Shown here: positions 1 to 13,445 of the stretch, piece by piece
How positions within the stretch are numbered: the first letter of the stretch is position 1
Layout of the letters: each line of letters starts with the position of its first letter
NCBI GenBank assembly: GCA_023430065.1
Contig: JAEZCG010000177.1
Span: 1-13,445 of the forward strand
Reading direction: 5' to 3'
Length of the DNA stretch: 13,445 nt
Source: Pseudomonadota bacterium
GTDB taxonomy: Bacteria; Pseudomonadota; Gammaproteobacteria; Burkholderiales; SHXO01
Translations under genes and position numbers: made by a program
Notes under the pieces: model-generated
What the model saw: only the letters and a program-made list of their open reading frames with translations
Databases searched by the model: none
What the model was told of the DNA's origin: nothing

Positions 1-263
1 TACTTCAGCACCCGCACGGGACCGACGGAAACCTCCGTGCTCCTGCGGGTGAAGTTGAACAGCTCGACGCGCAGGAGCCGCGCGAAGCGCTCGTTGATCA
101 GTTCCAGCGTGGGCCTGCGCCCCCGCACGATTCTTTGTTGGCGTCCAATGTCGTAGGCGCGGACGCCCTGCTCGCCTTCGACGGAAGCCGACTCTCCCTG
201 TTCGCCGCTTACCCCGCGCAGCAGCGCATCGACTTCTTCCTGTGAGAGGATGTCGTCGGCCAT
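1..263 (-). CDS. fliM: FliM, flagellar motor switch protein (N-terminal part, cut by the window edge)
   Basis: FliM is part of the cytoplasmic C-ring (switch) and binds phosphorylated CheY to reverse motor rotation. Only the first 87 codons are present; the rest lies beyond the left edge. Residues 6-15 read LSQEEVDALL, the conserved N-terminal CheY-P-binding peptide of the family. After a variable linker, the start of the middle domain is visible (YDIGRQQRIVRGRRPTLE, then ELINERFARLLR). The ATG at 261-263 is supported by an AGGTG-type ribosome site just upstream and lies only 5 bases after the fliL stop codon, so the two genes are almost certainly co-transcribed and probably translationally coupled. 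No defect is seen in the visible part. Confidence 0.96.
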   Translation of the reverse strand, partial: MADDILSQEEVDALLRGVSGEQGESASVEGEQGVRAYDIGRQQRIVRGRRPTLELINERFARLLRVELFNFTRRSTEVSVGPVRVLK

Positions 264-268
264 GTCAC

Positions 269-811
269 CTACTGGATGACGAACGAGGTCAGCAGCACTT
301 CCTGCACGCCCTTGACGTCATCGGCGCCGTCGCCATCGACCGCGTCGGCATCGTGATCTCCGGGTTCGATGCCCAATGGCGCATTCACCGCCGCGCGAAT
401 CTCGCGACGCAGCAGGTTCTTGCCCTCCAACGTGCCGAGCTCGTCCGCGTTCTTGCTCGACAGCAGGAGGAGCACCCCGTTGCGGATCTGTGGCAGGTGC
501 GCCTTGATCTGGTCCTCGATCACTTCCTCCGACACCTTGAGGTCGATTCCCACTTGCAGGTAGTGCTGTACTTCGCCGGAAAGATTCACCACGAACGGCT
601 CGAGCGTCACGAACTTCGGCGGGTGCTTGAGTCTGGGCTTCTCCGCCTGCGCCGCGTGCTCTGCATCGCCCTTGGACAGGAACACCCAGACTGCCCCACC
701 TCCACCCGCGAGCAGCAGCACCGCCGCTGCGATGATGGCCAGCAATAGACCTTTCTTTTTCTTGCCGCCGCCGCCCTCGCCTTCGCTCTTGGCTTGCGTC
801 TTGTCCGACAT
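269..811 (-). CDS. fliL: FliL, flagellar basal body-associated protein
   Basis: FliL is a single-pass inner-membrane protein that surrounds or stabilises the stator units at the flagellar motor. The protein is 180 residues, usual for the family. It has a short Gly/Lys-rich cytoplasmic tail (GGGGKKKK at 13-20), one membrane segment at about 21-45, and a periplasmic domain containing FVTLEPFVVNL (67-77) and the family C-terminus LLTSFVIQ. An Asp-rich stretch, roughly 151-165, sits between the conserved APLG motif and that C-terminus. The ATG at 811 was chosen over upstream in-frame codons because a perfect AGGAGG lies 6 bases before it and the family N-terminus fits. It is followed 5 bases later by fliM. 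Upstream is a 208-base spacer that may carry its own promoter. Confidence 0.95.
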   Translation of the reverse strand: MSDKTQAKSEGEGGGGKKKKGLLLAIIAAAVLLLAGGGGAVWVFLSKGDAEHAAQAEKPRLKHPPKFVTLEPFVVNLSGEVQHYLQVGIDLKVSEEVIEDQIKAHLPQIRNGVLLLLSSKNADELGTLEGKNLLRREIRAAVNAPLGIEPGDHDADAVDGDGADDVKGVQEVLLTSFVIQ

Positions 812-817
812 GGTCGA

Positions 818-823
818 CCTCCT
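818..823 (-). promoter_or_regulatory. Strong Shine-Dalgarno site of fliL
   Basis: On the minus strand this is AGGAGG, 6 bases before the fliL ATG. It decides the start codon, since the open frame continues further upstream. Confidence 0.85.
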
Positions 824-937
824 CTCGGGTCCGGTGAATGCGGCGCGATGCCGCCACCTCCGCATTTACGGCGCGGATCCCTTCGATATGAGGGCCGACG
901 CTTCAAACCAGAGAAAAAACAAGACGCTCTGCGACGC

Positions 938-966
938 AGTTTAGGTGGTTTCTAGAGCCAAGGCAA
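938..966 (-). promoter_or_regulatory. Possible sigma-70 promoter for fliL-fliM
   Basis: On the minus strand TTGCCT (961-966) and TAAACT (938-943) are separated by exactly 17 bases, each matching four of six positions of the -35 and -10 consensus. It lies in the 208-base fliK-fliL spacer (812-1019), which holds no gene that I can support. An 11-base palindrome, CTGCGTCGCAG (929-939), overlaps the -10 edge and the expected start site near 931. No convincing sigma-54 or sigma-28 promoter was found in the spacer. Two four-of-six matches can arise by chance, so this is a moderate to weak call. Confidence 0.3.
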
Positions 967-977
967 GGCTCGTAAGC

Positions 978-990
978 GTGCGCCGCGCAC
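978..990. repeat. Short inverted repeat in the fliK-fliL spacer
   Basis: The plus strand reads GTGCGCCGCGCAC: two 5-base arms with a 3-base centre. It sits 4 bases from the longer 995-1010 palindrome and just upstream of the possible fliL promoter. It may be a small hairpin or half of a compound operator. No U-tract follows on either strand, so it is not a standard terminator. Confidence 0.4.
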
Positions 991-994
991 AGAC

Positions 995-1010
995 TGCATC
1001 GATCGATGCA
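995..1010. repeat. Perfect 16-base palindrome after fliK
   Basis: TGCATCGATCGATGCA is a perfect 16-base palindrome, 10 bases past the fliK stop codon. It could be a protein-binding site, or it could form a hairpin with 6-base arms and a GATC loop. There is no T-run after it on either strand, which argues against an intrinsic terminator. Function unknown. Confidence 0.6.
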
Positions 1011-1019
1011 CAGGGGCGA

Positions 1020-2045
1020 TCAGGCGTAGGTGTCGACCAGTCCCATGCCGGTGCGACGCGCAGACCGGTCGATCGATCCAGACGCGGTGATCGAGCGCTC
1101 GCCCTCCAGCTGACGGTCGACCTGCCGACGCGATCCACCGTCCGCCTGTTCATGCGATCCCGGTTGCGCTTCGCCACCGACACTGACGTTGCCAAGTTCG
1201 AGTCCGATCGAGTGAATCATATCCTGCAGCCGCGGAATGCTCGATTGCAGCGCCTCGCGCACACCGGCGTGGGCCGCGACCAGACTCACGTTCGCCTGCT
1301 CGCCGTCGATGCTGAGGCGGACTTCGATGGGTCCGAGATGCGGCGGATCGACGCGCAGTTCGGCGACCTGCCGGTTGTTCGTGGCCATCCAGAGAACGCG
1401 ATCGCCGAGGTCGCTCGAGAAGCCGCGGCGGCCGAACGCGACCGGGTCGTCCAATGGGGTTCCGGCAACAGGAGCGGGCGCCGGGGAAGTCAGCTCGCCC
1501 TTACGCTCGGGTGCCTGCTGCGCGGAGAACTGCACCGGCATCGAGGCAGCAACCGGTGCGTCTGCGCTCTCGGCATGGCCCGCCATCGTGGGGGCGACGC
1601 GCGCGTCATCCCCGGCAATCACTGCCGCCTGGAGTGCTCCGGTCTGTGCGGCGGTCGCCAGGGTGCTCGTCGCCCGGCCCGGCATCGTGCCCTCGATCGC
1701 CGTCTCGTCGGACGCGTCGCTTCCCGTCGCCGACTCGCCGCTGCGCGCCAGCACGGAGAGCTTCGGCGCAGGCACCGGAACCGGAGACACCAGCGTCTGC
1801 AGGGTCACGGCCTCCGCGGCGCCCGCAAGCGTCCCGTCCTCCTCTTGCGCGCTTGCATCCTCGGCTGCCTTTACGGGGGCCTGTCCGACACCAGGCGGTT
1901 CGCCAGAGGGCGTGCCGAACTGCCGGGCCAGCACGGCCTGAAAGTCGAGACCGGCATCTTTGGCGCCCGGGAGGTCGGCTGCGGCCATCGTCTCGTGGCC
2001 GGGGGTGGAAAGCTGGAGCGTACGCAGGGTCAGCGATTCGGACAT
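1020..2045 (-). CDS. fliK: FliK, flagellar hook-length control protein
   Basis: FliK is the secreted molecular ruler that measures hook length and switches the export gate from hook to filament substrates. The called protein is 341 residues. Residues about 20-205 are Ala/Pro/Ser-rich, low-complexity and poorly conserved, as expected for the ruler part. Residues about 212-290 form the conserved C-terminal hook-length domain (Flg_hook), with the motif RVDPPHLGPIEVRL at 231-244 and the following strand/helix pattern. The tail after 290 is Arg/Ser/Gly-rich. Start: ATG at 2045 (MSESLTL...); an ATG three codons earlier, at 2054, is equally possible, and neither has a clear ribosome site. It lies 76 bases after fliJ in the same direction. 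The family identity is firm from the C-terminal domain and position; the exact start is not. Confidence 0.88.
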   Translation of the reverse strand: MSESLTLRTLQLSTPGHETMAAADLPGAKDAGLDFQAVLARQFGTPSGEPPGVGQAPVKAAEDASAQEEDGTLAGAAEAVTLQTLVSPVPVPAPKLSVLARSGESATGSDASDETAIEGTMPGRATSTLATAAQTGALQAAVIAGDDARVAPTMAGHAESADAPVAASMPVQFSAQQAPERKGELTSPAPAPVAGTPLDDPVAFGRRGFSSDLGDRVLWMATNNRQVAELRVDPPHLGPIEVRLSIDGEQANVSLVAAHAGVREALQSSIPRLQDMIHSIGLELGNVSVGGEAQPGSHEQADGGSRRQVDRQLEGERSITASGSIDRSARRTGMGLVDTYA

Positions 2046-2121
2046 AGGCGGCATCGGCAAGTGGCGGGAGCGCCTTTGCAATGTCCATGCCGTCGCGCCG
2101 CAAAGGAAATTATGCTCAATT

Positions 2122-2571
2122 TCAACTGCTTGTCGAATCGCTGCGCGAACGCCTGCCGGCAAATTCGTCCTGTTGCTTCTGCTCCCGTTTGCCGTCCCGC
2201 ACCGCCTCGGCAGCCAGGTGTCGCGTCTTCAGGACGTCCATCGCCTGCTCGCGCTGACGCAGGTCGAGCCATTCCCGGTGCTTGGCGGACCAGGCCTCCT
2301 GGCTTCGCCGCACTTCCGCACCCTGCAGATCGACCGCGCGCTCCAGCTTCGCGAGGAAGGCGCGGAAGTCCTGCAGCCGTCCGGTCTCCAGGCCGGACTG
2401 CATCGCGGTTCGAAACTGCTCACGATAGTCCGCCAGAAACCCCTGCAGCTGATCCAGACGGCTTTGGGCATCGGCGCGCCGCTGCGCGAGCTGTTGCAGC
2501 TCTCCGGTCGCGGCTTCCAGGCGCCGCCGCGCCAGCTCGAGCACCGGTTCCAGGCGGAAGCCCCGTGCCAC
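2122..2571 (-). CDS. fliJ: FliJ, flagellar export chaperone / ATPase stalk protein
   Basis: FliJ is a small coiled-coil protein that inserts into the FliI hexamer, much like the gamma stalk of F-type ATPases, and helps deliver export substrates. The product is 149 residues, typical of the family. It begins VARGFRLEPVLELARRRLEA, the usual FliJ N-terminus, and is almost wholly charged heptad-like helix (RRADAQSRLDQLQG, EVRRSQEAW), ending in a Lys/Arg/Gln-rich tail. The start is GTG at 2571, one base after the fliI stop codon, which implies translational coupling. The open frame extends upstream into fliI, but that part is only the antisense or out-of-frame shadow of the fliI end. Confidence 0.9.
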   Translation of the reverse strand: MARGFRLEPVLELARRRLEAATGELQQLAQRRADAQSRLDQLQGFLADYREQFRTAMQSGLETGRLQDFRAFLAKLERAVDLQGAEVRRSQEAWSAKHREWLDLRQREQAMDVLKTRHLAAEAVRDGKREQKQQDEFAGRRSRSDSTSS

Positions 2572-2572
2572 G

Positions 2573-4006
2573 TCAGCCGCCCACCAGTTCACGCAAGCGC
2601 TGCCGGCTCGCCGCGTACGGTGCGGCCTCCAGCAGATCCTGCTGCAGGAAGCCGGCGAGTTGCGGGTACAGGGCGACCGCACGATCCAGCAGCGGGTCGC
2701 TGCCGCGCACATAGGCCCCCACGGCGATCAGGTCCCGAGAGCGGCGATATGCCGAGAACAGCTGCTTGAAGCGGCGTGTCTCGTCCAGCTCGCCCGGCTG
2801 GAGGAGATCGGTCATCACCCGGCTGATCGACGCTTCGATGTCGATGGCCGGATAGTGCCCCTGCTCGGCGAGGTCACGCGTGAGCACGATATGGCCGTCG
2901 AGAATGGCCCGGGCCGCATCGGCCACCGGATCCTGCTGGTCGTCCCCCTCGGTGAGCACGGTATAGAAGCCTGTGATCGAGCCGCGGTCGTCCTGTCCGT
3001 TGCCGGCGCGTTCGACCAGCTGCGGCAGCTTCGCGAACACCGACGGCGTATAGCCCTTGGTCGCCGGCGGCTCGCCGATCGCCAGGCTGATCTCGCGCTG
3101 CGCCATCGCGTAGCGCGTGAGCGAATCCATGATGAGCAGGACGTGCTTGCCTTGATCGCGAAAGTACTCGGCCACGGCGGTGGCATACGCGGCGCCGTGC
3201 AGGCGCAGCAGCGGGGGGCTGTCGGCAGGGGCCGCCACGACCACCGCACGCCGCCTCCCTTCTTCCCCGAGGATGCTTTCGATGAACTCGCGGACTTCGC
3301 GTCCGCGCTCCCCGATGAGACCGACCACGACGACGTCCGCAGTGGTGTAGCGCGCCATCATGCCGAGCAGAACGCTCTTGCCCACGCCGCTGCCGGCGAA
3401 CAGCCCCAAGCGCTGTCCGCGACCCACGGTGAGAAGCGCATTGATGGCGCGCACCCCGACGTCGAGTACGTGGCGGATCGGTGCGCGATCGAGCGGGTTG
3501 GAGGTACGGCTGTGCAGGGGAACGTGCCGATCGAGCACGAGCGGACCCCGATCGTCGAGCGGACGGCCGGCGCCGTCCACCACACGTCCCAGCATGCCCC
3601 ATCCGACCGGCACCTGCTTGGCACGGTCCTGTGCACGCCGGCGCGGTACGAACGCCTCGCCCAGGCGAGGAACACGGGTCGCAGCGGGATCCACCGGCAC
3701 CACGAGGGCACCAGGCTTGAGGCCGTACACATCGGTCGAGGGCATGAGGAACAGCCGCTCGCCGTTGAAACCCACCACCTCGGCATCGACCCGCTGGCTG
3801 CTCGGAGTCATCACGTAGCAGCTGTTGCCGACCGGCAATTTGAGGCCGACGGCCTCCATCACCAGCCCCGCCACACGCGTGAGTCGTCCGCATACCATGA
3901 ACGGCTGGGTCATATGCAGCGCGCGCCTGCAGTCGTCCAGATAACGGTCCCAGCGCTGACGATAGTCCACGAGAGTGCGTCGCGGGAAGCGATCAATCCC
4001 AGGCAT
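2573..4006 (-). CDS. fliI: FliI, flagellum-specific export ATPase
   Basis: FliI is the hexameric ATPase at the base of the flagellar type III export apparatus; it is related to the F1 beta subunit and energises substrate unfolding and entry. The 477-residue length is normal or slightly long. Walker A is AGSGVGKS (204-211), Walker B is LLIMD (290-294) followed by [11 protein letters not shown], and [13 protein letters not shown] (312-324) with [10 protein letters not shown] (342-351) are family signatures. The ATG at 4006 overlaps the end of fliH by 14 bases, and the stop codon is followed one base later by fliJ. This makes fliH-fliI-fliJ a tightly coupled export-ATPase module. No missing catalytic residue is seen. 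Confidence 0.98.
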
Positions 4007-4652
4007 CGTCGCGCCCGAGCGCGGCGATCACGCGCTGCCAGCGCGTCTCCATGCTGCCGTCCACCTCGGTCGACGAGGTTTCGAGCCTGAATCCACCGCG
4101 GGTCATCTGCGCGTCCTCGACGATTCTCCATGGGACCGGAAGGATGCGTTCGTCGCCCGATAGCGCGCGCAGCATCTGCGCGTCGGCCGGATGCACGACC
4201 AGCGTCACCTGCTCGGACAGCGACGGCAGGCTTTCCACCCCCTCTCGCAGCGCGGCGAGCAGGATGTCGGGCTTGACCCGCAGGTGCTCCCGCAACACCA
4301 GCCTTGCCACCTCCAGGCTCATCCCGAGCACGTCGCCGGCGAGCCGTTGCTCCAGGTCGCGCATGAGCGACTGCAGACCCTGCATCGCACGCCGCAAGTC
4401 TTCCCGCTCGCGCTCGAGCACGCTGTCCAGTTCCGTGCGTGCGGCCTGCGCACCCGCGCGGCGACCCTCCTCGCGCGCCTGCTCGAGTTCGGCGGCACGC
4501 GCAGCGGCTGCCGACTCATCGGCCCGGCGCTTCGCTTCGAGCGCCGCCTCCCCCTCGGCACGCGCCTTCGCCACCTGGGGTGCGGCGAAGTCGGCAAGAT
4601 CGGCCTTGCGCATGCCGGCGACCGCGGCGCCACGCAGAATGCTATTCGACAA
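3993..4652 (-). CDS. fliH: FliH, flagellar export ATPase regulator (stator-like)
   Basis: FliH dimerises through coiled coil, binds the N-terminus of FliI, inhibits the free ATPase and anchors it to the C-ring. The product is 219 residues: residues about 25-105 are Ala/Glu/Arg-rich helix (the extended coiled coil with its small-residue repeats), and about 105-215 are the globular FliH/V-ATPase E-subunit-like domain, with [13 protein letters not shown] and [15 protein letters not shown] as recognisable family pieces. The called start is a TTG at 4652, overlapping the fliG end by 11 bases, with a GAGGG just upstream. An ATG 13 codons downstream (MRKADL) is the alternative. The overlaps with fliG and fliI indicate coupling. 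Confidence 0.93.
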
Positions 4653-5640
4653 GACCCTCGTCTCCCTTCCCGCCCATCACGATCTGACCTTCCTCGGCGA
4701 GGCGGCGCACGATGCGCAGGATTTCCCTCTGCTCCGCCTCGACCTCGGACAGGCGCACCGGCCCCTTCGACTCGAAGTCGTCGCGCAGCATCTCGGCGGC
4801 GCGCTGGGACATGTTCTTGAATATCTTCTCGCGCAGCGCCTCGCTCGTCCCCTTGAGCGCGACGATCAGCGTCTCGGACTGGATCTCGCGCAGCAACAGC
4901 TGGATCGAGCGGTCGTCGAGTTCGGTGAGGTTGTCGAACACGAACATCTTGTCCTGGATCCGCTGCGCGAGGTCGGCATCGGTCTCGCGGATGTGGGCCG
5001 TGACGGAGGCTTCCACGGTGCCGCCCAGGTAGTTGAGAATGTCCGCTGCCGCCTCGATGCCTCCCTTGGAGGTCTTCTTCAGCTTGTCGCTACCGGCGAG
5101 CAGCTGCATGAGTGCATCGTTGAGGTCGCGCAGTGCGGACGGCTGCACGCCCTCCAGCGTGGCAATCCGCAGCATGACGTCGTTGCGCAGTCGCTCGACG
5201 AACTTGCCGAGCACCTCTGCCGCCAGATCCGCGTCCAGGTGCACGAGGATCGTGGCGATGATCTGCGGATGCTCGTGCTTGATCAGCTCGGCGATCGCAT
5301 CGCCGTCCATCCATTTCAGGCTTTCGATGCCGCTGACATCCTGCGCCTGCAGAATGCGGTCGATGAGCGGGCCGGCCTTCTCGCTGCCCAGCGCGCGGGT
5401 GAGGACCGAGCGCAGATACTGATCGGGCGACGTGCCGATCGACGTCTGCTGGCTGGCCTGTTGGCGGAAGGCGCGCAGCACGTCTGCCACCTGGTCGCGG
5501 CTGACGCCATTGAGCGTGGCCATGACCTGGCCGAGCTTGTGCACCTCCTTCGGGCCGAGATGCTTGAAGACTTCGACCGCCTCCTCCTCGCCAATCGACA
5601 TGAGCAGGATGGCGCTGCGCATCAAGCCATCGTCACTCAC
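4642..5640 (-). CDS. fliG: FliG, flagellar motor switch / torque protein
   Basis: FliG forms the top of the C-ring, joins it to FliF and meets the MotA stator to produce torque. The 332-residue length is exactly typical. The N-terminal FliF-binding domain starts SAILLMSIGEEEA (9-21); the middle domain carries EHPQ at 123-126; the hydrophobic hinge MFVF is at 232-235; and the torque helix keeps the charged residues K263, R280, D287, D288 and R296, which match the well-studied E. coli positions shifted by one. The start is GTG at 5640, overlapping the fliF stop by 8 bases; it gives the normal family N-terminus, whereas the next ATG (residue 7) would clip it. No anomaly seen. Confidence 0.98.
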   Translation of the reverse strand: MSDDGLMRSAILLMSIGEEEAVEVFKHLGPKEVHKLGQVMATLNGVSRDQVADVLRAFRQQASQQTSIGTSPDQYLRSVLTRALGSEKAGPLIDRILQAQDVSGIESLKWMDGDAIAELIKHEHPQIIATILVHLDADLAAEVLGKFVERLRNDVMLRIATLEGVQPSALRDLNDALMQLLAGSDKLKKTSKGGIEAAADILNYLGGTVEASVTAHIRETDADLAQRIQDKMFVFDNLTELDDRSIQLLLREIQSETLIVALKGTSEALREKIFKNMSQRAAEMLRDDFESKGPVRLSEVEAEQREILRIVRRLAEEGQIVMGGKGDEGLVE

Positions 5641-7312
5641 CGCGCCCCACCCACTCCTTCACGACGTTCGCGACCAGCCGCGGCTCCTGCTTGGCGAGCT
5701 CCTTGACTGCCCTGAGGTCCGCCTCGAAGCGCGCAGCCGCATCCCCGGGCACGCCAATCGTCTCCGCGCCGGGCGCGGCGCCCGCAAGCTGCGCCTGCAT
5801 GCCGGGTGGCGCCGGCAATTCCTCCACGGTCGGCTCGATGCGGCCGGGGGCGCCCAGATCGCGCAGCATGGCGCGCACGATGCGGAAGACGATCAGCAGC
5901 ACCAGGGCCGCGCCGAGGTACTTGAGGATCTGGATCACGCCGACCGGCGTGCCGAGATCCTGTACGAACGTGGTCCAGGGCGAGGGCGCCGCCTCGCCTC
6001 CCGGCAACACGTCTGCGCTGAACGGCGCATTCACCACGTTGACGGTGTCGCCACGCTCCGGGCTGAACCCCATGGCCTGGCGCACCAGGGCATTGACCTG
6101 CTGGATTTCCGGCTCGGTCAGCGGCTTGTAGGTGGCCGTGCCGTCCGCGCCGGCCTCGCGCTTGTAGTTGACCACCACGGCGGCGGACAGGCGCCTGATC
6201 GCGCCCAGCTCGCCCTGGCTGCGTCGGATCACCTTGTCCACCTCGAAGTTGGTGATCGTCTCGCGCTGGGTACTGGTCGGCTGCGGGGGCGCGCCGGCAG
6301 CCTGTTCCGCCTGGCCGGGCGCCGTCAACGGAGCGGTCGCCGCGCCCGGCGGCTGGTTGCTCAGGGCGCCCGGCACCCCTTGCGCAGCCTGCGCCTGAGT
6401 GGTGGTGCTCTCCGTGGTCTGCTGGCTTCGGACGGACGACTCCGCCGGGGTCGGATTGGGCTTGAAGCGCTCGGAGGTTTCCTCGACGCGGGTGAAATCC
6501 AGCGCAGCGGTCACCTGCGCCCGCACGTTCTCCGCCCCTACCAGCGGCACGAGGATGTTCTCGATGCGTCGTGCATAGCTGGACTCGACTGCATGCACAT
6601 ACTTGAGCTGAGCCGCATCGAGCTGGTTCGGCATTTCTGCCCCGGCTGCGCCGCTCAGCAGGTTGCCCGCCTGGTCTACCACGGTGACTTGGCGCACGCC
6701 GAGCTCGGGAACGCTGCTGGCGACCAAATGCTGGATTGCGCTCACCTGCGCAGCATCCAGCATCCGCCCCGGATACATGGACACGAACACCGACGCGCTC
6801 GGCTTCTGCTGTTCGCGCACGAACACGGTCGGTCGGGGAATGGCCAGATGCACGCGTGCCGCCTGCACGGCGCCGACCGATTGAATGCTGCGGGCCAGTT
6901 CGCCGGCCAGGGCACGCTGGTAGTTGACCTGCTCGGCGAACTGGCTGATGCCAAACTTCTGCGTATCCATCAGCTCGAACCCGACCGCTCCGCCCCTGGG
7001 CAGGCCCTGCGAAGCGAGCTGCAACCTCAGATCGTAGACCCGGTCCGCGGGCACCATGAGTGCGGTGCCGCCCTCGGCAACCCGATAGGGGACGTTCATC
7101 TGCGCGAGCGCGGCGATCACCTCGCCACCGTCGCGATCGGACAGGTTGGAATACAGCACCCGATAGTCCGGAACCCTTGCCCACAGGATCGCGACCGCGG
7201 TCACGGCGACGAGCGCTGCGATGGCGGCGAGGACGCCGAGCTTCTGGGGGATGCTGAGTCGCGCGAAGCCGGAGGCTGCGCGGCGGATGCCTTGTCCCGG
7301 GGACTGGGCCAT
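5633..7312 (-). CDS. fliF: FliF, flagellar MS-ring protein
   Basis: FliF assembles in the inner membrane as the MS ring, the foundation for rotor and export gate. The called protein is 559 residues, normal for the family. It has a first membrane segment at about 25-45, periplasmic ring-building domains (VPDYRVLYSNLSDRDGG early; later the HLVASSVPEL region), a disordered Gln/Pro/Thr/Ala-rich linker in the C-terminal half, a second membrane segment within YLGAALVLLIVFRIV, and a C-terminal FliG-binding tail (VANVVKEWVGRGE). The ATG at 7312 was chosen over the adjacent upstream TTG because AGGGG lies just before it. Its 3' end overlaps fliG by 8 bases. The 106 bases between it and fliE hold no gene I can see. 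Confidence 0.98.
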   Translation of the reverse strand: MAQSPGQGIRRAASGFARLSIPQKLGVLAAIAALVAVTAVAILWARVPDYRVLYSNLSDRDGGEVIAALAQMNVPYRVAEGGTALMVPADRVYDLRLQLASQGLPRGGAVGFELMDTQKFGISQFAEQVNYQRALAGELARSIQSVGAVQAARVHLAIPRPTVFVREQQKPSASVFVSMYPGRMLDAAQVSAIQHLVASSVPELGVRQVTVVDQAGNLLSGAAGAEMPNQLDAAQLKYVHAVESSYARRIENILVPLVGAENVRAQVTAALDFTRVEETSERFKPNPTPAESSVRSQQTTESTTTQAQAAQGVPGALSNQPPGAATAPLTAPGQAEQAAGAPPQPTSTQRETITNFEVDKVIRRSQGELGAIRRLSAAVVVNYKREAGADGTATYKPLTEPEIQQVNALVRQAMGFSPERGDTVNVVNAPFSADVLPGGEAAPSPWTTFVQDLGTPVGVIQILKYLGAALVLLIVFRIVRAMLRDLGAPGRIEPTVEELPAPPGMQAQLAGAAPGAETIGVPGDAAARFEADLRAVKELAKQEPRLVANVVKEWVGRGE

Positions 7313-7418
7313 CAACCCCTGCCTTGCTGCGGGCAGGTCGGAGGGCAGGGTCCGGGCGGAGGACTGCTACGGCGCACGGGCCGCGAACTGGATGGGACGC
7401 AGATCGCCACCGACACGC

Positions 7419-7745
7419 TCAGACCTGCATGTTCATGATTTCCTGGTACGCCGAAACCAGCCGGTTGCGCACCTGGACCATGGTCTGGAACGACAGACTG
7501 GCCTTCTGGAGTGACGCCATCACCTCGTGCAGGTTCACGTCGGGGGCGTTCATATCGAACTGCTGCTGGAGCCGGGCCGCTTCGTTCTGCGCGGCATTGA
7601 CCTGCTCGAGTGCCGTCTTGAGCGCCTCGCCGAACTCGACGCCACCCGCGCCGTCGGCCGGGGCACTTTCCCCCCCAGCCTGCGCAGCCATACGGTTCAA
7701 CTCCTGCAGGAGCTGATCGATGCCTTGCGAATTGATGCTGTTCAT
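7419..7745 (-). CDS. fliE: FliE, flagellar hook-basal body adaptor protein
   Basis: FliE is the first axial protein and links the MS ring to the proximal rod; it is itself an export substrate. The product is 108 residues, the usual size. The conserved C-terminal half is clear: FGEALKTALEQVNAAQNEA, then DVNLHEVMASLQKASLSF and the ending VRNRLVSAYQEIMNMQV. The ATG at 7745 gives the normal N-terminus (MNSINSQGIDQLL). The open frame reaches 7823, but that codon lies upstream of the predicted sigma-54 transcription start near 7801, so it cannot be used from that promoter. The ribosome site is weak. It is the first gene of the fliEFGHIJ(KLM) run. Confidence 0.96.
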   Translation of the reverse strand: MNSINSQGIDQLLQELNRMAAQAGGESAPADGAGGVEFGEALKTALEQVNAAQNEAARLQQQFDMNAPDVNLHEVMASLQKASLSFQTMVQVRNRLVSAYQEIMNMQV

Positions 7746-7764
7746 CGGATTGCGATCACGGTTG

Positions 7765-7796
7765 AATGCGGGCGTCCCCGTCGTACCGAACGCATT
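7765..7796. repeat. Inverted repeat in the fliE leader
   Basis: AATGCG (7765-7770) and CGCATT (7791-7796) are 6-base complementary arms with a 20-base spacer, inside the predicted fliE 5' untranslated region (about 7746-7801). It may be a weak leader hairpin, or a downstream enhancer-type site for the sigma-54 activator, as described for some FlrC targets. With 6-base arms it may also be chance. Confidence 0.25.
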
Positions 7797-7811
7797 ACCC
7801 GGGCGCCCGGC

Positions 7812-7827
7812 TGCAACTCCCATGCCA
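7812..7827 (-). promoter_or_regulatory. Sigma-54 (-24/-12) promoter of the fliE operon
   Basis: The minus strand reads TGGCATGGGAGTTGCA, against the consensus TGGCAC-N5-TTGC(A/T). Only one base departs from the core, and the GG and GC doublets have the required 12-base period. The predicted start of transcription is near 7801, giving a leader of about 56 bases before the fliE ATG. The site begins 8 bases after the stop codon of the adjacent sigma-54 activator gene, its likely regulator. Spacing, position and context all agree. Confidence 0.88.
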
Positions 7828-7835
7828 CACGACGC

Positions 7836-9209
7836 TCACTCTCCCTCTACCCGCTGCGCCGCACTCTCCAGGCGATACTGCGCGAGCTTGTAGCGCAGCG
7901 TTCTCTCGCTCATGCCCAACCGCTCCGCCGCGACCTTACGCACGCCGCCCGCCGCCGCCAATGTCTCGAGGATGTGGGTCCGCTCCAGCGACTTCAGGTC
8001 GGTAGGCAGCCCCCTCGCACCGGACGGGGCGGCAGTTTCTGCCGCTTCGAACGCTGTCGCCCCCGTGGCAGCCGGATGGCCGCCGCTCGGCAGGCACAGA
8101 TGCTCCGCTTCGATCGTGGCGCCGGGCGCGAGGATCATCGCCCGCTGCATCACGTTCTCCAACTCCCTGATGTTACCTTTCCAAGTATAGGTCGTCAAAC
8201 GACTTTCCGCCTCTGCCGAGAGGGAAAATGTGCGCCCCCCGCGCTGCGATGCGGCGCGCGCCAGGACCGCACGTGCCAGGGGCAGGATGTCGCGCCGGCG
8301 CTCCCGTAACGCCGGCACGCGCAGCGGGAACACGTTGAGCCGATAGTACAGGTCCTCGCGGAAGCGGCCTGCCTGCACCTCGGCCTCCAACTCCCGGTTG
8401 GAGGTCGCGAGCACCCGCACATCCAGGGCAATGGGACGCCTGGCGCCCACGCGCTCCACCTCCCGTTCCTGTAGTACGCGCAGCAGTTTGGCTTGCAGCG
8501 CCAGGGGCATCTCGGTGATCTCGTCGAGCAGCAGGGTCCCCGACTGCGCCTGCTCGAATTTGCCCGCATGCGGCTGGGTCGCGCCGGTGAAAGCGCCACG
8601 CTCGTATCCGAACAGGGTGGCTTCCAGCAGATTGTCCGGGATGGCCGCGCAGTTGATCGCGACGAAGGGATGGCGTGCGCGCGCCGAATGGCGGTGGATG
8701 GCACGCGCCACCACCTCCTTGCCCACCCCGCTCTCGCCGGTGAGCAGGACGGTGGCCTCCGAGGCGGCGACCCGTCGCGCCAGTTCGAGCATCTCCCTGG
8801 TGGCCGGATCCTCCGCGATCACCTCGCCATCCCCGTTCGACGCGGCAGGCAGCATCCAGCGCGCGACTTCAGCAACCAGCGCCTCGGGTTCGAAGGGCTT
8901 CGGCAGGTAGTTGCACGCTCCCTGACGCATCGCTTCGACGGCACGTTCGATCATCCCGTACGCGGTCATCAGCAGCACCGGGGTGGCGGGCCAGCGCGCC
9001 TTCACCTCGCGCAGGAGCGTTTCGCCGTCCATCGGTTTCATCTGCACATCGCTCACGATGATGCCCACGCGCCGGTTTTCCAGCAGGCGCAGCGCTGCTT
9101 CCCCGTCCGCGCACTCGAGTGTTTCGTAGCCGGACAATTCCAGCGTGTCCTTGAGCGCTTCGCGCAGATCGGTGTCGTCCTCGACGACGAGCACGGGCAA
9201 TGGCTTCAC
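7836..9209 (-). CDS. fleR: Sigma-54-dependent flagellar response regulator (FleR/FlrC type)
   Basis: This is an NtrC-family activator that, when phosphorylated by its partner kinase, opens sigma-54 promoters of mid-class flagellar genes. The called product is 457 residues. The receiver domain spans 1-118 with acidic residues E10-D12, phospho-acceptor D54 (VSDVQM), T82 and K104. The AAA+ domain has Walker A GESGVGKE (158-165), the sigma-54-contacting GAFTGA loop (205-210) and Walker B LLLDE (226-230), followed by REDLYYRLNVFPLRVP. A Fis-type helix-turn-helix ends the protein (VRKVAAERLGMSERTLRYKL). The GTG at 9209 is preferred because CCGGAG lies 5 bases upstream; a TTG at 9239 would extend it by 10 residues into the kinase gene. 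It follows the kinase by 13 bases and precedes the sigma-54 promoter of fliE. The symbol is by family and context; FlrC would be the Vibrio name. Confidence 0.93.
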   Translation of the reverse strand: MKPLPVLVVEDDTDLREALKDTLELSGYETLECADGEAALRLLENRRVGIIVSDVQMKPMDGETLLREVKARWPATPVLLMTAYGMIERAVEAMRQGACNYLPKPFEPEALVAEVARWMLPAASNGDGEVIAEDPATREMLELARRVAASEATVLLTGESGVGKEVVARAIHRHSARARHPFVAINCAAIPDNLLEATLFGYERGAFTGATQPHAGKFEQAQSGTLLLDEITEMPLALQAKLLRVLQEREVERVGARRPIALDVRVLATSNRELEAEVQAGRFREDLYYRLNVFPLRVPALRERRRDILPLARAVLARAASQRGGRTFSLSAEAESRLTTYTWKGNIRELENVMQRAMILAPGATIEAEHLCLPSGGHPAATGATAFEAAETAAPSGARGLPTDLKSLERTHILETLAAAGGVRKVAAERLGMSERTLRYKLAQYRLESAAQRVEGE

Positions 9210-9214
9210 GGCAA

Positions 9215-9220
9215 CTCCGG
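9215..9220 (-). promoter_or_regulatory. Shine-Dalgarno site deciding the GTG start of the response regulator
   Basis: The minus strand reads CCGGAG, 5 bases before the GTG at 9209. No comparable site lies before the alternative upstream TTG at 9239. Confidence 0.6.
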
Positions 9221-9222
9221 AT

Positions 9223-10398
9223 TCATCGTTGTTCGGCAAGCGGTACGGTCAGCGTGAACAGCGCCCCGTGCCCCGGCACGGACTCGACGTCGATTTCGCC
9301 GCCGTGGGCCTGCACCACGGTGCGCACGATCGCGAGTCCCAGACCCGTCCCCTCCTGCCGGGTGGTGAAGAACGGCTCGAACAGCCGCGCACGCGTCGCC
9401 GCGTCTATTCCGGGACCGCTGTCGCGCACCCGCACGCGCAGCTGCGCGTGCGCGACGTCCGCGTCCAGGCTCACGCTGCCACCGCTGCCGCAGGCCTGCA
9501 GCGCGTTCTCGAGCAGGTTCACCAGCGCCCCCTGCAGCGCCTTGCGATTGCCGCGCGCGTGCGCATCCCCCGCGGCGATGCGCGCATCGAAGGCGATGCC
9601 GGCGGCATGCATCTGCGGCTCGATCGTCTGCGCGACCTCCTGCAGCAGTTCCGGCACGGCGATGACCTCCTGCGCGGCGGGTGCGCCGCGCACGAAGGTG
9701 AGCATGTCCTGGATCATCCGCTCGAGGTCGCGCAGTCACGCCTGCGCGCGTTCGGCGAAGCGCACCCGGTCGCCGTCGGCGAGCGCCGGGCGCGCGAGAT
9801 TGCCGGCGTACAGGAGCGCCGTGGCGAGCGGCGTGCGCAACTGATGGGCGAGTCCGGCCGCCATCTCTCCCATCGAAGCGAGGCGGCGATGGTGCTCCAG
9901 TTGCTCGGCCAGGCGGCGCGCCTCGGTGATCTCGGTCAGCAGCAGAATGCTCGCACCTGCCGAATCCAGCGGACTCGTCGACAGCGTGACCCAGCGCTCC
10001 ACCGCGCCGGCCCCGCGCAGGGACCACTCCTGCCCCCCCTGGCGCGGCTGCAGCGCCTCGGCGGCCACCTCGTCCCACTGCCGCCCGATCGGCTCGACGC
10101 CGAGCATGTCCTGCGCGGCCGGATTGCACTGCGCCACGCGCCGCTGTGCATCGAGCACCACGACGCCGCCGGGCAACGCGGCCAGCAGGTGGGAAAGGCG
10201 CTGCGACAAGGCCTCCTTTTCCTCGTACTGGCGGCGCAACTCGCCGTTGGCGACGGCCAACTCTTCGCTCAGCCGCGCCACCTGCTGCTCGAGATCGTGG
10301 TAAGCGTTCGCAAGCTGGGCAGATGCCTCGTTGAACAGGGAGAATGCCTGTTCCAGGTCGCGCGGTGACGGGACGTTCGCAGAGTCGGCCAAGGGCAA
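9223..10398 (-). pseudogene. fleS: Flagellar sensor histidine kinase (FleS/FlrB type), interrupted by an in-frame TGA
   Basis: This soluble PAS-containing kinase should phosphorylate the neighbouring FleR-type regulator. From a TTG at 10398 (start uncertain, no clear ribosome site) the frame encodes a coiled coil (about 30-70), a PAS domain (about 70-160) and the phospho-acceptor box AGLAHQLRTPL with His185. It then meets TGA at codon 221 (bases 9736-9738). The same frame continues without any shift as LRDLERMIQDML, then the N box (VNLLENALQA), G1 (VRDSGPGID), F box (FEPFFTT) and G2 (GTGLGLAI), to the stop at 9223. Read through, it would be about 391 residues with family-normal spacing. The stop falls where relatives carry an Arg, so one C-to-T change (CGA to TGA) explains it. 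As written, the first product lacks the ATP-binding domain. It could be a true nonsense mutation, a mixed-strain base or a base-calling error. Confidence 0.88.
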
Positions 10399-10483
10399 GA
10401 CGAATGCAAGGCGGAATTGAGGGTTCGCGCGAGCATACCAACGGCGGCATCCGGGCGAAAGGCCGGAGCGGTCGCGGCGTGGT

Positions 10484-10513
10484 TTGACACCCGTTCGCGG
10501 CCGATGCTAAAAG
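10484..10513 (+). promoter_or_regulatory. Sigma-70 type promoter of sodC
   Basis: A perfect -35 TTGACA (10484-10489) is followed after 18 bases by TAAAAG (10508-10513), which has an extended -10 TG at 10505-10506. The predicted start near 10520 leaves a leader of about 60 bases before the sodC ATG. It lies in the 184-base divergent spacer between the kinase gene and sodC. No clear promoter for fleSR on the other strand was identified in the spacer. Confidence 0.6.
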
Positions 10514-10582
10514 AGCTCGAATCGACGATTACCGCCTCGGCGCGCACAAGGCGCTGGGACACACGCCTCCGCAGGAGATTTG

Positions 10583-11113
10583 ATGAAAGCCAGTCTTGTC
10601 GTGTCCGTCTGTGCGCTCGTGCTCGCGGGCTGCGCGGGTGTCAGCCTGCGCTCTCCCACTGCGGTCGCGAAGCTTGCGCCGACCCGAGACAGCCAGGTGA
10701 GTGGGACGGTGGCCTTCACGCAGGAGGGCGACAAGGTGCGGGTGGAGGCGCGCATCGTCGGACTGAACCCCGGCTTGCACGGCTTCCACGTGCACGAACG
10801 CGGGGACTGCACCGCGCCGGACGGATCGAGCGCGGGACCGCATTTCAATCCGCACTCGGGCGAACATGGCGGCCCGGACACCTCCACCCGGCATGCCGGC
10901 GACCTCGGCAACATCGAGGCCGGAGAAGACGGCGTGGCCGTCTATCGCGCGCAGGTCGCCGGTATCAGCCTGGGCAGCGGCACCGACAGCATCATCGGCC
11001 GCTCCGTGATCGTGCACGAGAATCCCGACGACCTGTCCTCGCAGCCAGCCGGCAGCGCCGGCGCCCGGCTCGCCTGCGGACTGATCAGCAAGAGTGCGGA
11101 CAAGTGGTTCTGA
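10583..11113 (+). CDS. sodC: Cu,Zn superoxide dismutase family lipoprotein
   Basis: The protein should dismutate superoxide to hydrogen peroxide and oxygen in the periplasm, anchored by lipid. It is 176 residues. A lipoprotein signal peptide ends in LAGC with the lipidated Cys at 17. The metal ligands are all visible: H69 and H71 (FHVHE), bridging H87 (HFNP), zinc ligands H95, H104 and D107 (RHAGDLGN), and copper ligand H145 (VHENPDD). C76 and C165 are placed to form the structural disulfide. The ATG at 10583 is preceded by AGGAG at the right distance; a TTG one codon earlier is too close to it. It has its own sigma-70-like promoter and is divergent from the flagellar block, with no functional link apparent. 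Confidence 0.95.
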   Translation: MKASLVVSVCALVLAGCAGVSLRSPTAVAKLAPTRDSQVSGTVAFTQEGDKVRVEARIVGLNPGLHGFHVHERGDCTAPDGSSAGPHFNPHSGEHGGPDTSTRHAGDLGNIEAGEDGVAVYRAQVAGISLGSGTDSIIGRSVIVHENPDDLSSQPAGSAGARLACGLISKSADKWF

Positions 11114-12652: not shown

Positions 12653-13372
12653 TTGTCCTTCGAACGCATCACCATCGAGACCCGCGACCACGTGACGCTC
12701 ATCGGACTGAACCGTCCGACCAAGCGCAACGCCGTGGACATCGCGATGTACACCGAGCTCGCGCAGGCCTATGGCGCGTACGAGCGCGATGCGGATGCGC
12801 GCTGTGCGCTGCTGTTCGCGCACGGCGAGCACTTCACCGGCGGGATCGAACTGCCGCAGTGGCTGCCCTACTTCCGGGACGGACGCATGCCGCCGCTGCC
12901 GGAGGGCGCCATCGACCCGCTGCTGCGCACCCGGTCGCTGTCCAAGCCGCTGGTGATCGCCGTGCGCGGGTGGTGCCTGACCATCGGCATCGAATTCCTG
13001 CTCGCCGCCGACATCCGCCTCGCGGCGCACGACACGCGCTTTGCGCAGATCGAGGTCAAGCGCGGCATCTTTCCCATCGGCGGCGCCACCGTGCGCCTGC
13101 CGCGCGAGCTCGGCTGGGGCAATGCGATGCGCATCCTACTCACCGGCGACGAGTTCGGCGCCGAGCAGGCACTAGGGTGGGGGATGGTGCAGGAGACCGC
13201 GCCTGCCGACGAGGTCCTGGATCGCGCGCGAACGCTCGCGCAGCGCATCGCGCGGCAGTCGCCCGTGGGCATCCGGGCGACGCTGGCCTCGGCGCGCCTG
13301 GCGCGCGATGGCGGGGACGCGGCCGCGGATTCCCGGGCGGGGGGCGGCGCGGCACGGTGCCGACCTCGATGA
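12653..13372 (+). CDS. Crotonase / enoyl-CoA hydratase-isomerase family protein, 3' end disrupted
   Basis: Crotonase-fold enzymes act on acyl-CoA thioesters, most often hydrating enoyl-CoA; the exact substrate here is unknown. From the TTG at 12653 (MSFERITIE, good ribosome site) the frame has 239 codons. Visible features are LNRPTKRNA (20-28), the first oxyanion-hole segment HFTGGIEL (60-67), the second one around [12 protein letters not shown] with Glu114, and [12 protein letters not shown] with Glu134, so both catalytic Glu positions of the hydratases are kept; [12 protein letters not shown] follows. Resemblance continues to about residue 225 (base 13325), after which the frame reads a Gly/Arg-rich tail and stops at 13372. 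That is some 30 residues short of a normal end, because the DNA there is the opposite strand of a pyrD fragment. An ATG at 12623 is the alternative start. Confidence 0.85.
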
Positions 13373-13445
13373 ATCCGAAGCCCAGGTGGGCGAGTGCGTC
13401 GAGATGCTCGGCGTTCTTGTCCAGGCCTGCCGCGAGACCCACGGG
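13317..13445 (-). pseudogene. pyrD: Dihydroorotate dehydrogenase (class 2) internal fragment
   Basis: Read leftward from the right edge, 43 codons match the FMN-binding region of membrane-linked dihydroorotate dehydrogenase (orotate formation in pyrimidine synthesis, electrons to quinone). [18 protein letters not shown] is followed by [10 protein letters not shown] and PGNPRPR. The 5' part of the gene lies beyond the window. After PGNPRPR the frame immediately becomes the antisense of the crotonase gene, so all of the 3' part of pyrD is absent here. Between GTV and PGN the near-invariant TPRPQ pattern is replaced by PRRPP, which suggests low-quality bases or decay. In many betaproteobacteria pyrD lies close to aat-bpt, so its presence is expected, but a truncated copy in this opposing orientation is not. 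Confidence 0.8.

What the first reader, a model, noticed from the sequence alone, without database searches (positions are those of the whole stretch)
9736..9738. In-frame TGA splits the FleS-type flagellar kinase between its His box and its ATP-binding domain
Both halves lie in the same frame with no missing or extra residues, so only one base is wrong relative to an intact gene. The family alignment I can recall puts Arg at this position, and CGA to TGA is a C-to-T change at a CpG. If real, the kinase cannot autophosphorylate in one piece, FleR-type activation would fail or rely on another donor, and the cell could be non-motile or phase-variable. The downstream fliE-fliM genes look intact, so any loss would be recent.
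Basis: partly seen in the sequence, partly recalled or inferred. Interest (0 to 1): 0.75.

Follow-up and report, generated by a model that had tools for sequence, protein, structure and literature searches.

The report
Lone stop codon in flagellar kinase
A bacterial flagellar sensor kinase gene carries one in-frame stop that its examined close relatives lack, most simply a recent knock-out mutation or a sequence error and not a new mechanism.

Summary
On the minus strand, codon 221 of a FlrB/FleS-type kinase gene (10398-9223) is TGA at 9738-9736. Upstream lie PAS and the phospho-acceptor helix; downstream, in the same frame, an intact HATPase domain. In the predicted structure the stop falls inside the second helix of the HisKA hairpin. 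The stop looks private: intact homologue P0121 differs at only one other residue besides start-codon reading, with 170 of 170 identical after the stop. The 120 listed best homologues all have Arg there, and 0 of 78 comparable loci have a stop at this site. Recoding is not supported: TGA ends 11 of 13 complete genes, no selenocysteine signal is evident, and nearly the same downstream DNA follows a sense codon in a relative. No repeat supports phase variation. I read it as a very recent null allele (about 0.5) or a consensus error (about 0.4); the contig end carries an inverted join. Reads are needed. 'Non-motile' does not follow: Pseudomonas aeruginosa lacking fleS kept its flagellum (PMC8335546), though FleSR is reported as required for rod and hook genes (PMC7064773). 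Ordinary; low interest.

The parts
9739..10398 (-). fleS/flrB-type kinase, upstream piece: PAS and HisKA with the phospho-acceptor His at residue 185; start TTG 10398 or the TTG at 10392 that P0121's start corresponds to
   Evidence: Pfam PAS_8, PAS_4, HisKA; His box at residue 185; P0121 start
9736..9738 (-). in-frame TGA, codon 221
9223..9735 (-). downstream piece in the same frame: rest of HisKA helix 2 and the HATPase_c domain, ending in its own TGA
   Evidence: Pfam HATPase_c E 6e-28; stop
9715..9717 (-). first in-frame ATG after the stop, 18 nt downstream, no clear Shine-Dalgarno-like sequence in the 20 nt before it
9655..9671 (-). AGGAGG (9671-9666), 8 nt, then in-frame GTG (9657-9655): possible but unconserved start for a HATPase-only protein
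   Evidence: both features in 3 of 56 loci, G009 included
7836..9239 (-). fleR/flrC-type sigma-54 activator (receiver, AAA+, Fis HTH), uninterrupted; start TTG 9239 (overlaps fleS by 17 nt) or GTG 9209, the start of P0001 (no overlap)
   Evidence: P0001 is identical to it from residue 11 on
7812..7827 (-). sigma-54-type -24/-12 site with one mismatch, at the start of the longest fliE frame and upstream of its second ATG (7745); identical in G009
   Evidence: consensus recalled; 10 sites with up to 3 mismatches in the window, this one the best
3..7823 (-). fliE, fliF, fliG, fliH, fliI, fliJ, fliK, fliL, fliM (cut by the contig end)
   Evidence: gene names recalled from sequence and order, no family search was run on these nine
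13318..13445 (.). contig end: a piece read as pyrD (recalled) in inverted orientation relative to G009, cutting the enoyl-CoA hydratase gene; the two matches overlap by 9 bases at the join

Best explanation
This is an ordinary FlrB/FleS-type flagellar kinase gene with one private, very recent nonsense codon. In a cell that carries it, translation ends inside the second helix of the HisKA hairpin. The product has PAS and the acceptor His but no complete dimerisation bundle and no ATP-binding domain, so it cannot autophosphorylate: a null allele. FleR would then lack its usual phosphodonor and act at basal level or through other donors, weakening sigma-54 flagellar promoters, perhaps the one in front of fliE. 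Shown: the stop, the frame, the domain cut, intact near-identical homologues, a promoter-like site. Inferred: the null effect and the regulatory outcome. Whether the base exists in living cells is not shown; a consensus error is the main rival.
For: One codon between the halves, both domains recognisable. P0121 (389 aa, longest contig 27,838 bp) is intact and, apart from how the start codon is read, differs from the window only at the stop and at residue 212, where the window has Val like P0122 and P0123. After the stop 170 of 170 residues are identical to P0121, so no decay has followed. The 12 other complete genes match G009 over all or nearly all their length, and the window-G009 pair shows purifying selection in 11 of 11 stretches tested, both kinase halves included, Ka/Ks 0.06-0.33. 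In PAO1 only full-length FleS, not variants lacking PAS, HisKA or HATPase, restored a fleS deletion (PMC8335546, passages).
Against: No other sequence with this stop was found: the search with the upstream piece gave no identical truncated protein (fragments may be hidden inside larger clusters). The contig end shows an inverted join with odd residues beside it, so base-level errors cannot be ruled out. No reads or coverage were available, and no whole genome is held for the window.
Confidence: 0.5

Rival explanations
1. Consensus or amplification error: the cells have an intact fleS and one wrong base entered the contig.
For: The stop is seen in none of the relatives examined: 0 of 120 listed proteins and 0 of 78 loci at this site. 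A 99% identical homologue is intact. The last 128 bases are inverted relative to G009, the two matches overlapping by 9 bases; inversions made up 406 of 475 amplification chimeras in PMC1855051 (passages). Residues next to the join depart from G009 in a short run.
Against: The join lies 3.6 kb away, and contig ends are often poor. Elsewhere in the window no other frame looks broken against G009, and FleR equals P0001 throughout P0001's 457 residues, so the error rate is low.
Confidence: 0.4
2. Split kinase: the downstream piece is started separately (GTG 9657 behind AGGAGG, or ATG 9717) and works with the PAS-HisKA piece in trans.
For: AGGAGG eight nucleotides before an in-frame GTG, also in the nearest genome G009. 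Split kinases exist: CheA3/CheA4 (PMC3591291, passages).
Against: The stop divides HisKA helix 2, so neither piece has a whole dimerisation domain. The start features occur together in only 3 of 56 loci, and in G009 they lie inside an intact gene. In PAO1 variants lacking a domain did not complement, and single FleS domains were also tested (PMC8335546, text and legend passages). No other copy of the stop was found.
Confidence: 0.04
3. Recoding: TGA is read as selenocysteine, tryptophan or another residue and a full-length kinase is made.
For: Cys occurs at this column in 5 of 78 loci, which are 34-41% identical in the downstream half; a weak hairpin can be drawn after the stop.
Against: TGA is the terminator of 11 of 13 complete genes, fleS included, against a changed code. 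The fold is ordinary (z -1.04, 31 of 200 shuffles as good), no Rfam family reached its gathering score in the window, and in G009 almost the same downstream DNA follows a sense codon. The 120 listed homologues have Arg.
Confidence: 0.02
4. Phase-variable or selected off-switch of motility.
For: Phase variation of flagellar two-component genes in Campylobacter is recalled (one search listed 8 of 19 papers holding the words; no text was read). Motility regulators are lost in nature, e.g. FleQ in PA103 (PMC4020848, abstract).
Against: No tandem repeat in fleS and no run of four or more equal bases within 60 nt of the stop. The only run of six or more in the gene is seven C (plus strand) at 10033-10039, where the frame is intact. 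Inverted repeats were not searched.
Confidence: 0.04

Closest known systems
FlrB/FleS flagellar sensor kinase (Vibrio cholerae, Pseudomonas aeruginosa)
   Same: PAS, HisKA and HATPase_c, directly upstream of an FlrC/FleR-type activator in a flagellar gene cluster; many homologues bear the source name 'sensor histidine kinase FlrB'.
   Different: This copy is interrupted by TGA in HisKA helix 2.
Natural loss-of-function mutations in flagellar regulators (FleQ G240V in PA103, PMC4020848, abstract)
   Same: A point lesion in a flagellar regulator.
   Different: Missense in a master activator of a strain shown to be aflagellate; here a nonsense codon in the kinase, with no phenotype known.
Split histidine kinases (CheA3/CheA4 of Rhodobacter sphaeroides, PMC3591291, passages)
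   Same: Acceptor and catalytic parts on different polypeptides, if both pieces were made.
   Different: CheA3 and CheA4 are two separate proteins that form a bipartite kinase; here the cut runs through a helix and was found in one contig only.

Membership tests
FlrB/FleS-type flagellar kinase | PAS, HisKA, HATPase_c in this order | tested here: met
   both pieces together; intact homologue P0121 bears the same Pfam families
FlrB/FleS-type flagellar kinase | no membrane segment (cytoplasmic) | not tested
   no membrane predictor was run
FlrB/FleS-type flagellar kinase | gene next to an FlrC/FleR-type activator in a flagellar cluster | tested here: met
   fleR follows fleS directly and has receiver, sigma-54 activator and HTH_8 domains; order shared with G009; fliE-fliM names recalled
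FlrB/FleS-type flagellar kinase | one uninterrupted polypeptide | tested here: not met
   in-frame TGA at codon 221; listed homologues have a sense codon there
FlrB/FleS-type flagellar kinase | kinase activity towards FleR | not testable with these tools
   needs biochemistry
Selenoprotein | TGA aligned with Cys in close homologues | tested here: not met
   0 of 120 listed homologues have Cys; 5 of 78 genome loci, all distant, do
Selenoprotein | bacterial SECIS hairpin directly after TGA | tested here: inconclusive
   weak hairpin, z -1.04; no Rfam match in the window
Selenoprotein | sel genes in the genome | not testable with these tools
   no whole genome held
Split histidine kinase | separate reading frames with whole acceptor and catalytic domains | tested here: not met
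   cut inside HisKA helix 2; internal start features in 3 of 56 loci only
Phase-variable gene | slippage tract or tandem repeat at the lesion | tested here: not met
   no tandem repeat in 9200-10450, no run of four or more bases within 60 nt; inverted repeats not searched

The most novel reading that the evidence does not exclude
The stop is real and tolerated because the cell makes two polypeptides: a PAS-HisKA stub and a HATPase protein started at GTG 9657 behind AGGAGG. These act together or compete, turning a one-piece flagellar kinase into a split one by a single mutation.
Probability: 0.03. Interest if true: 0.5.

Novelty: already known. Interest (0 to 1): 0.12.

Why it matters
It matters little. 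If the allele is real it is one more example of a flagellar regulator caught just after loss, in a betaproteobacterium. It also shows that a nonsense codon in a lone contig should not be read as biology until reads and relatives have been checked.

Tried and rejected
Own genome: not held. None nearer than G009 was found (kinase 84% and 74% identical in its two halves), so the DNA of near-identical strains could not be compared.

'Another TGA-bearing kinase' in G088 (L097, flagged): rejected; the frame is open through the kinase to a natural terminator. L050 shows a stop at the third codon of its match, near the N terminus, possibly before the true start; not followed up.

Accelerated decay of the downstream half: Ka/Ks of window against G009 is 0.33 there against 0.10 in the upstream half. 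Rejected as a sign of decay: the downstream half is the less identical one in 115 of 120 comparisons with the window and in 749 of 780 pairs made from the first 40 of the 120 listed intact homologues.

Selenocysteine, changed code, reinitiation, slippage: see rivals. A plasmid search with the downstream piece gave kinases below 60% identity (limit of 5000 records reached), and a nucleotide search gave 27 records, none covering 80% of the gene. NCBIfam gave no listed match above its cut-off for the kinase or FleR (best 25 shown). A sigma-70 promoter and terminator scan of 9200-10600 found nothing. A literature search for fleS, premature stop codon and nonmotile (44 papers with two of three terms, 15 listed) listed none about such an allele; that does not show that none is in print.

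Full report
What is there. The window is a contig with high third-position GC (0.76-0.89 in 13 genes). The best-matching FleR loci (64-66% identity) are mostly betaproteobacteria, while the 80 kept also hold gammaproteobacteria and others; where named, two of the near FleR and FleS homologues are labelled Burkholderiales bacterium (P0003; P0134). No whole genome is held for it. On the minus strand it reads fleS, fleR, then fliE, fliF, fliG, fliH, fliI, fliJ, fliK, fliL and the start of fliM; on the plus strand sodC, aat, ate and an enoyl-CoA hydratase gene. The names fliE to fliM and pyrD are recalled from sequence and gene order; no family search was run on them.

The stop. Codon 221 of fleS is TGA at 9738-9736. 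The upstream 220 codons match PAS and HisKA, the downstream 170 match HATPase_c. Of 114 loci held, 6 were left out as duplicates, 30 gave no usable match to both halves, and 78 remained; in 78 of 78 the halves are in one frame. Two of the 78 showed a stop inside the matched stretch: L097, where it is the natural terminator, and L050, at the third codon of the match, not followed up. None has one at this site. The residue at the site in the 78, projected without gaps from the downstream match, is Arg 58, Gln 11, Cys 5, Gly 2, Ser 2.

How private it is. A protein search with the frame read as X at the stop listed the best 120 of 3792 matches among 8000 candidates scored. All 120 have Arg at the column. 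The best, P0121, is a 389-residue intact kinase whose longest contig has 27,838 bp. Apart from how the start codon is read, it differs from the window only at residue 212 (Glu in P0121; Val in the window, P0122 and P0123) and at the stop. After the stop, 170 of 170 residues agree. FleR of the window is identical to P0001 over P0001's 457 residues; P0001 is on two contigs, the longest again of 27,838 bp. By that length I infer that P0001 and P0121 share a contig; whether the second contig is the window's own is not told. So a near-identical strain has an intact kinase, and the window's copy has gathered no other private residue. A search with the upstream piece alone found no identical truncated protein; its one hit at E <= 1e-80 was P0241, a different truncated kinase.

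Where the protein is cut. The AlphaFold2 model of P0121 (36 sequences, mean pLDDT 84.7, pTM 0.50) has HisKA helices 156-198 and 206-235; the acceptor His is 183 and the stop falls at 219. The best solved sequence relative is 9p6i, named histidine kinase (E 6e-68); the 50 listed fold matches of 993 are mostly histidine kinases, with a few phytochromes. The stub therefore keeps PAS and the His but loses half of the second hairpin helix and the whole ATP-binding domain. In PAO1 the text of PMC8335546 states that only full-length FleS, not variants lacking PAS, HisKA or HATPase, restored a fleS deletion (passages).

Consequences for motility. [quoted passage not shown] A scan for sigma-54-type sites gave 10 in the window with up to 3 mismatches; the best, with one, lies at 7827-7812 by fliE and is identical in G009, and one with two lies at 2092-2077 by fliK, with a similar site at the matching place of G009. 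PMC8335546 reports that deletion of fleS only slightly reduced swimming and left the flagellum intact, while deletion of fleR abolished it (passages). So a null fleS need not mean a non-motile cell, though the two papers pull in different directions.

Other readings tested. Changed code: TGA terminates 11 of 13 complete genes. Selenocysteine: no Cys in the 120 listed homologues, an ordinary fold after the stop (z -1.04, 31 of 200 shuffles as good), no Rfam match at gathering score, and nearly the same downstream DNA behind a sense codon in G009; sel genes could not be looked for. Reinitiation: an ATG 18 nt after the stop has no clear ribosome-binding sequence; a GTG at 9657 has AGGAGG at good spacing, but both features occur together in only 3 of the 56 loci of at least 40% identity that could be scored, G009 among them. 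Slippage: no tandem repeat in the gene and no run of four or more within 60 nt.

Real or error. For a real allele: the 12 other complete genes match G009 over all or nearly all their length, and selection on the pair window-G009 is purifying in 11 of 11 stretches tested, the two kinase halves included. For an error: the stop has no second witness, and the contig is not faultless. Its last 128 bases align to G009 in the opposite orientation, the two matches overlapping by 9 bases at 13318-13326, with about 390 bases of G009 between the joined points. Residues beside the join depart from G009 in a short run. Inversions were 406 of 475 amplification chimeras in PMC1855051 (passages), though an assembly fault, or a real rearrangement, could look alike. 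I give 0.5 to a real recent null allele and 0.4 to an error; only reads can settle it.

Verdict.

Noticed in passing
window 13318-13445: The contig end is a piece (pyrD by recall) inverted relative to G009 and joined inside the enoyl-CoA hydratase gene, with odd residues beside the join; most likely an amplification or assembly chimera.
   Followed up: partly
window 7812-7827 and 2077-2092, minus strand: Two sigma-54-type sites, by fliE (identical in G009) and by fliK (similar site in G009).
   Followed up: partly
protein P0241 (256 aa, contig of 144,939 bp): A second truncated FleS-like protein, 70% identical to P0122, whose similarity ends shortly after HisKA in a short unrelated tail; a different, frameshift-like lesion or error in another lineage.
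   Followed up: partly
window 10033-10039: Run of seven C (plus strand) inside fleS where the frame is intact; a possible slippage site unrelated to the stop.
   Followed up: no
L028, L034, L035, L038, L039 (upstream of fleR): Distant proteobacterial FleS relatives have Cys where the window has TGA and most others have Arg.
   Followed up: partly
L050, about 2794: A stop near the N terminus of the FleS-like match; may lie before the true start.
   Followed up: no
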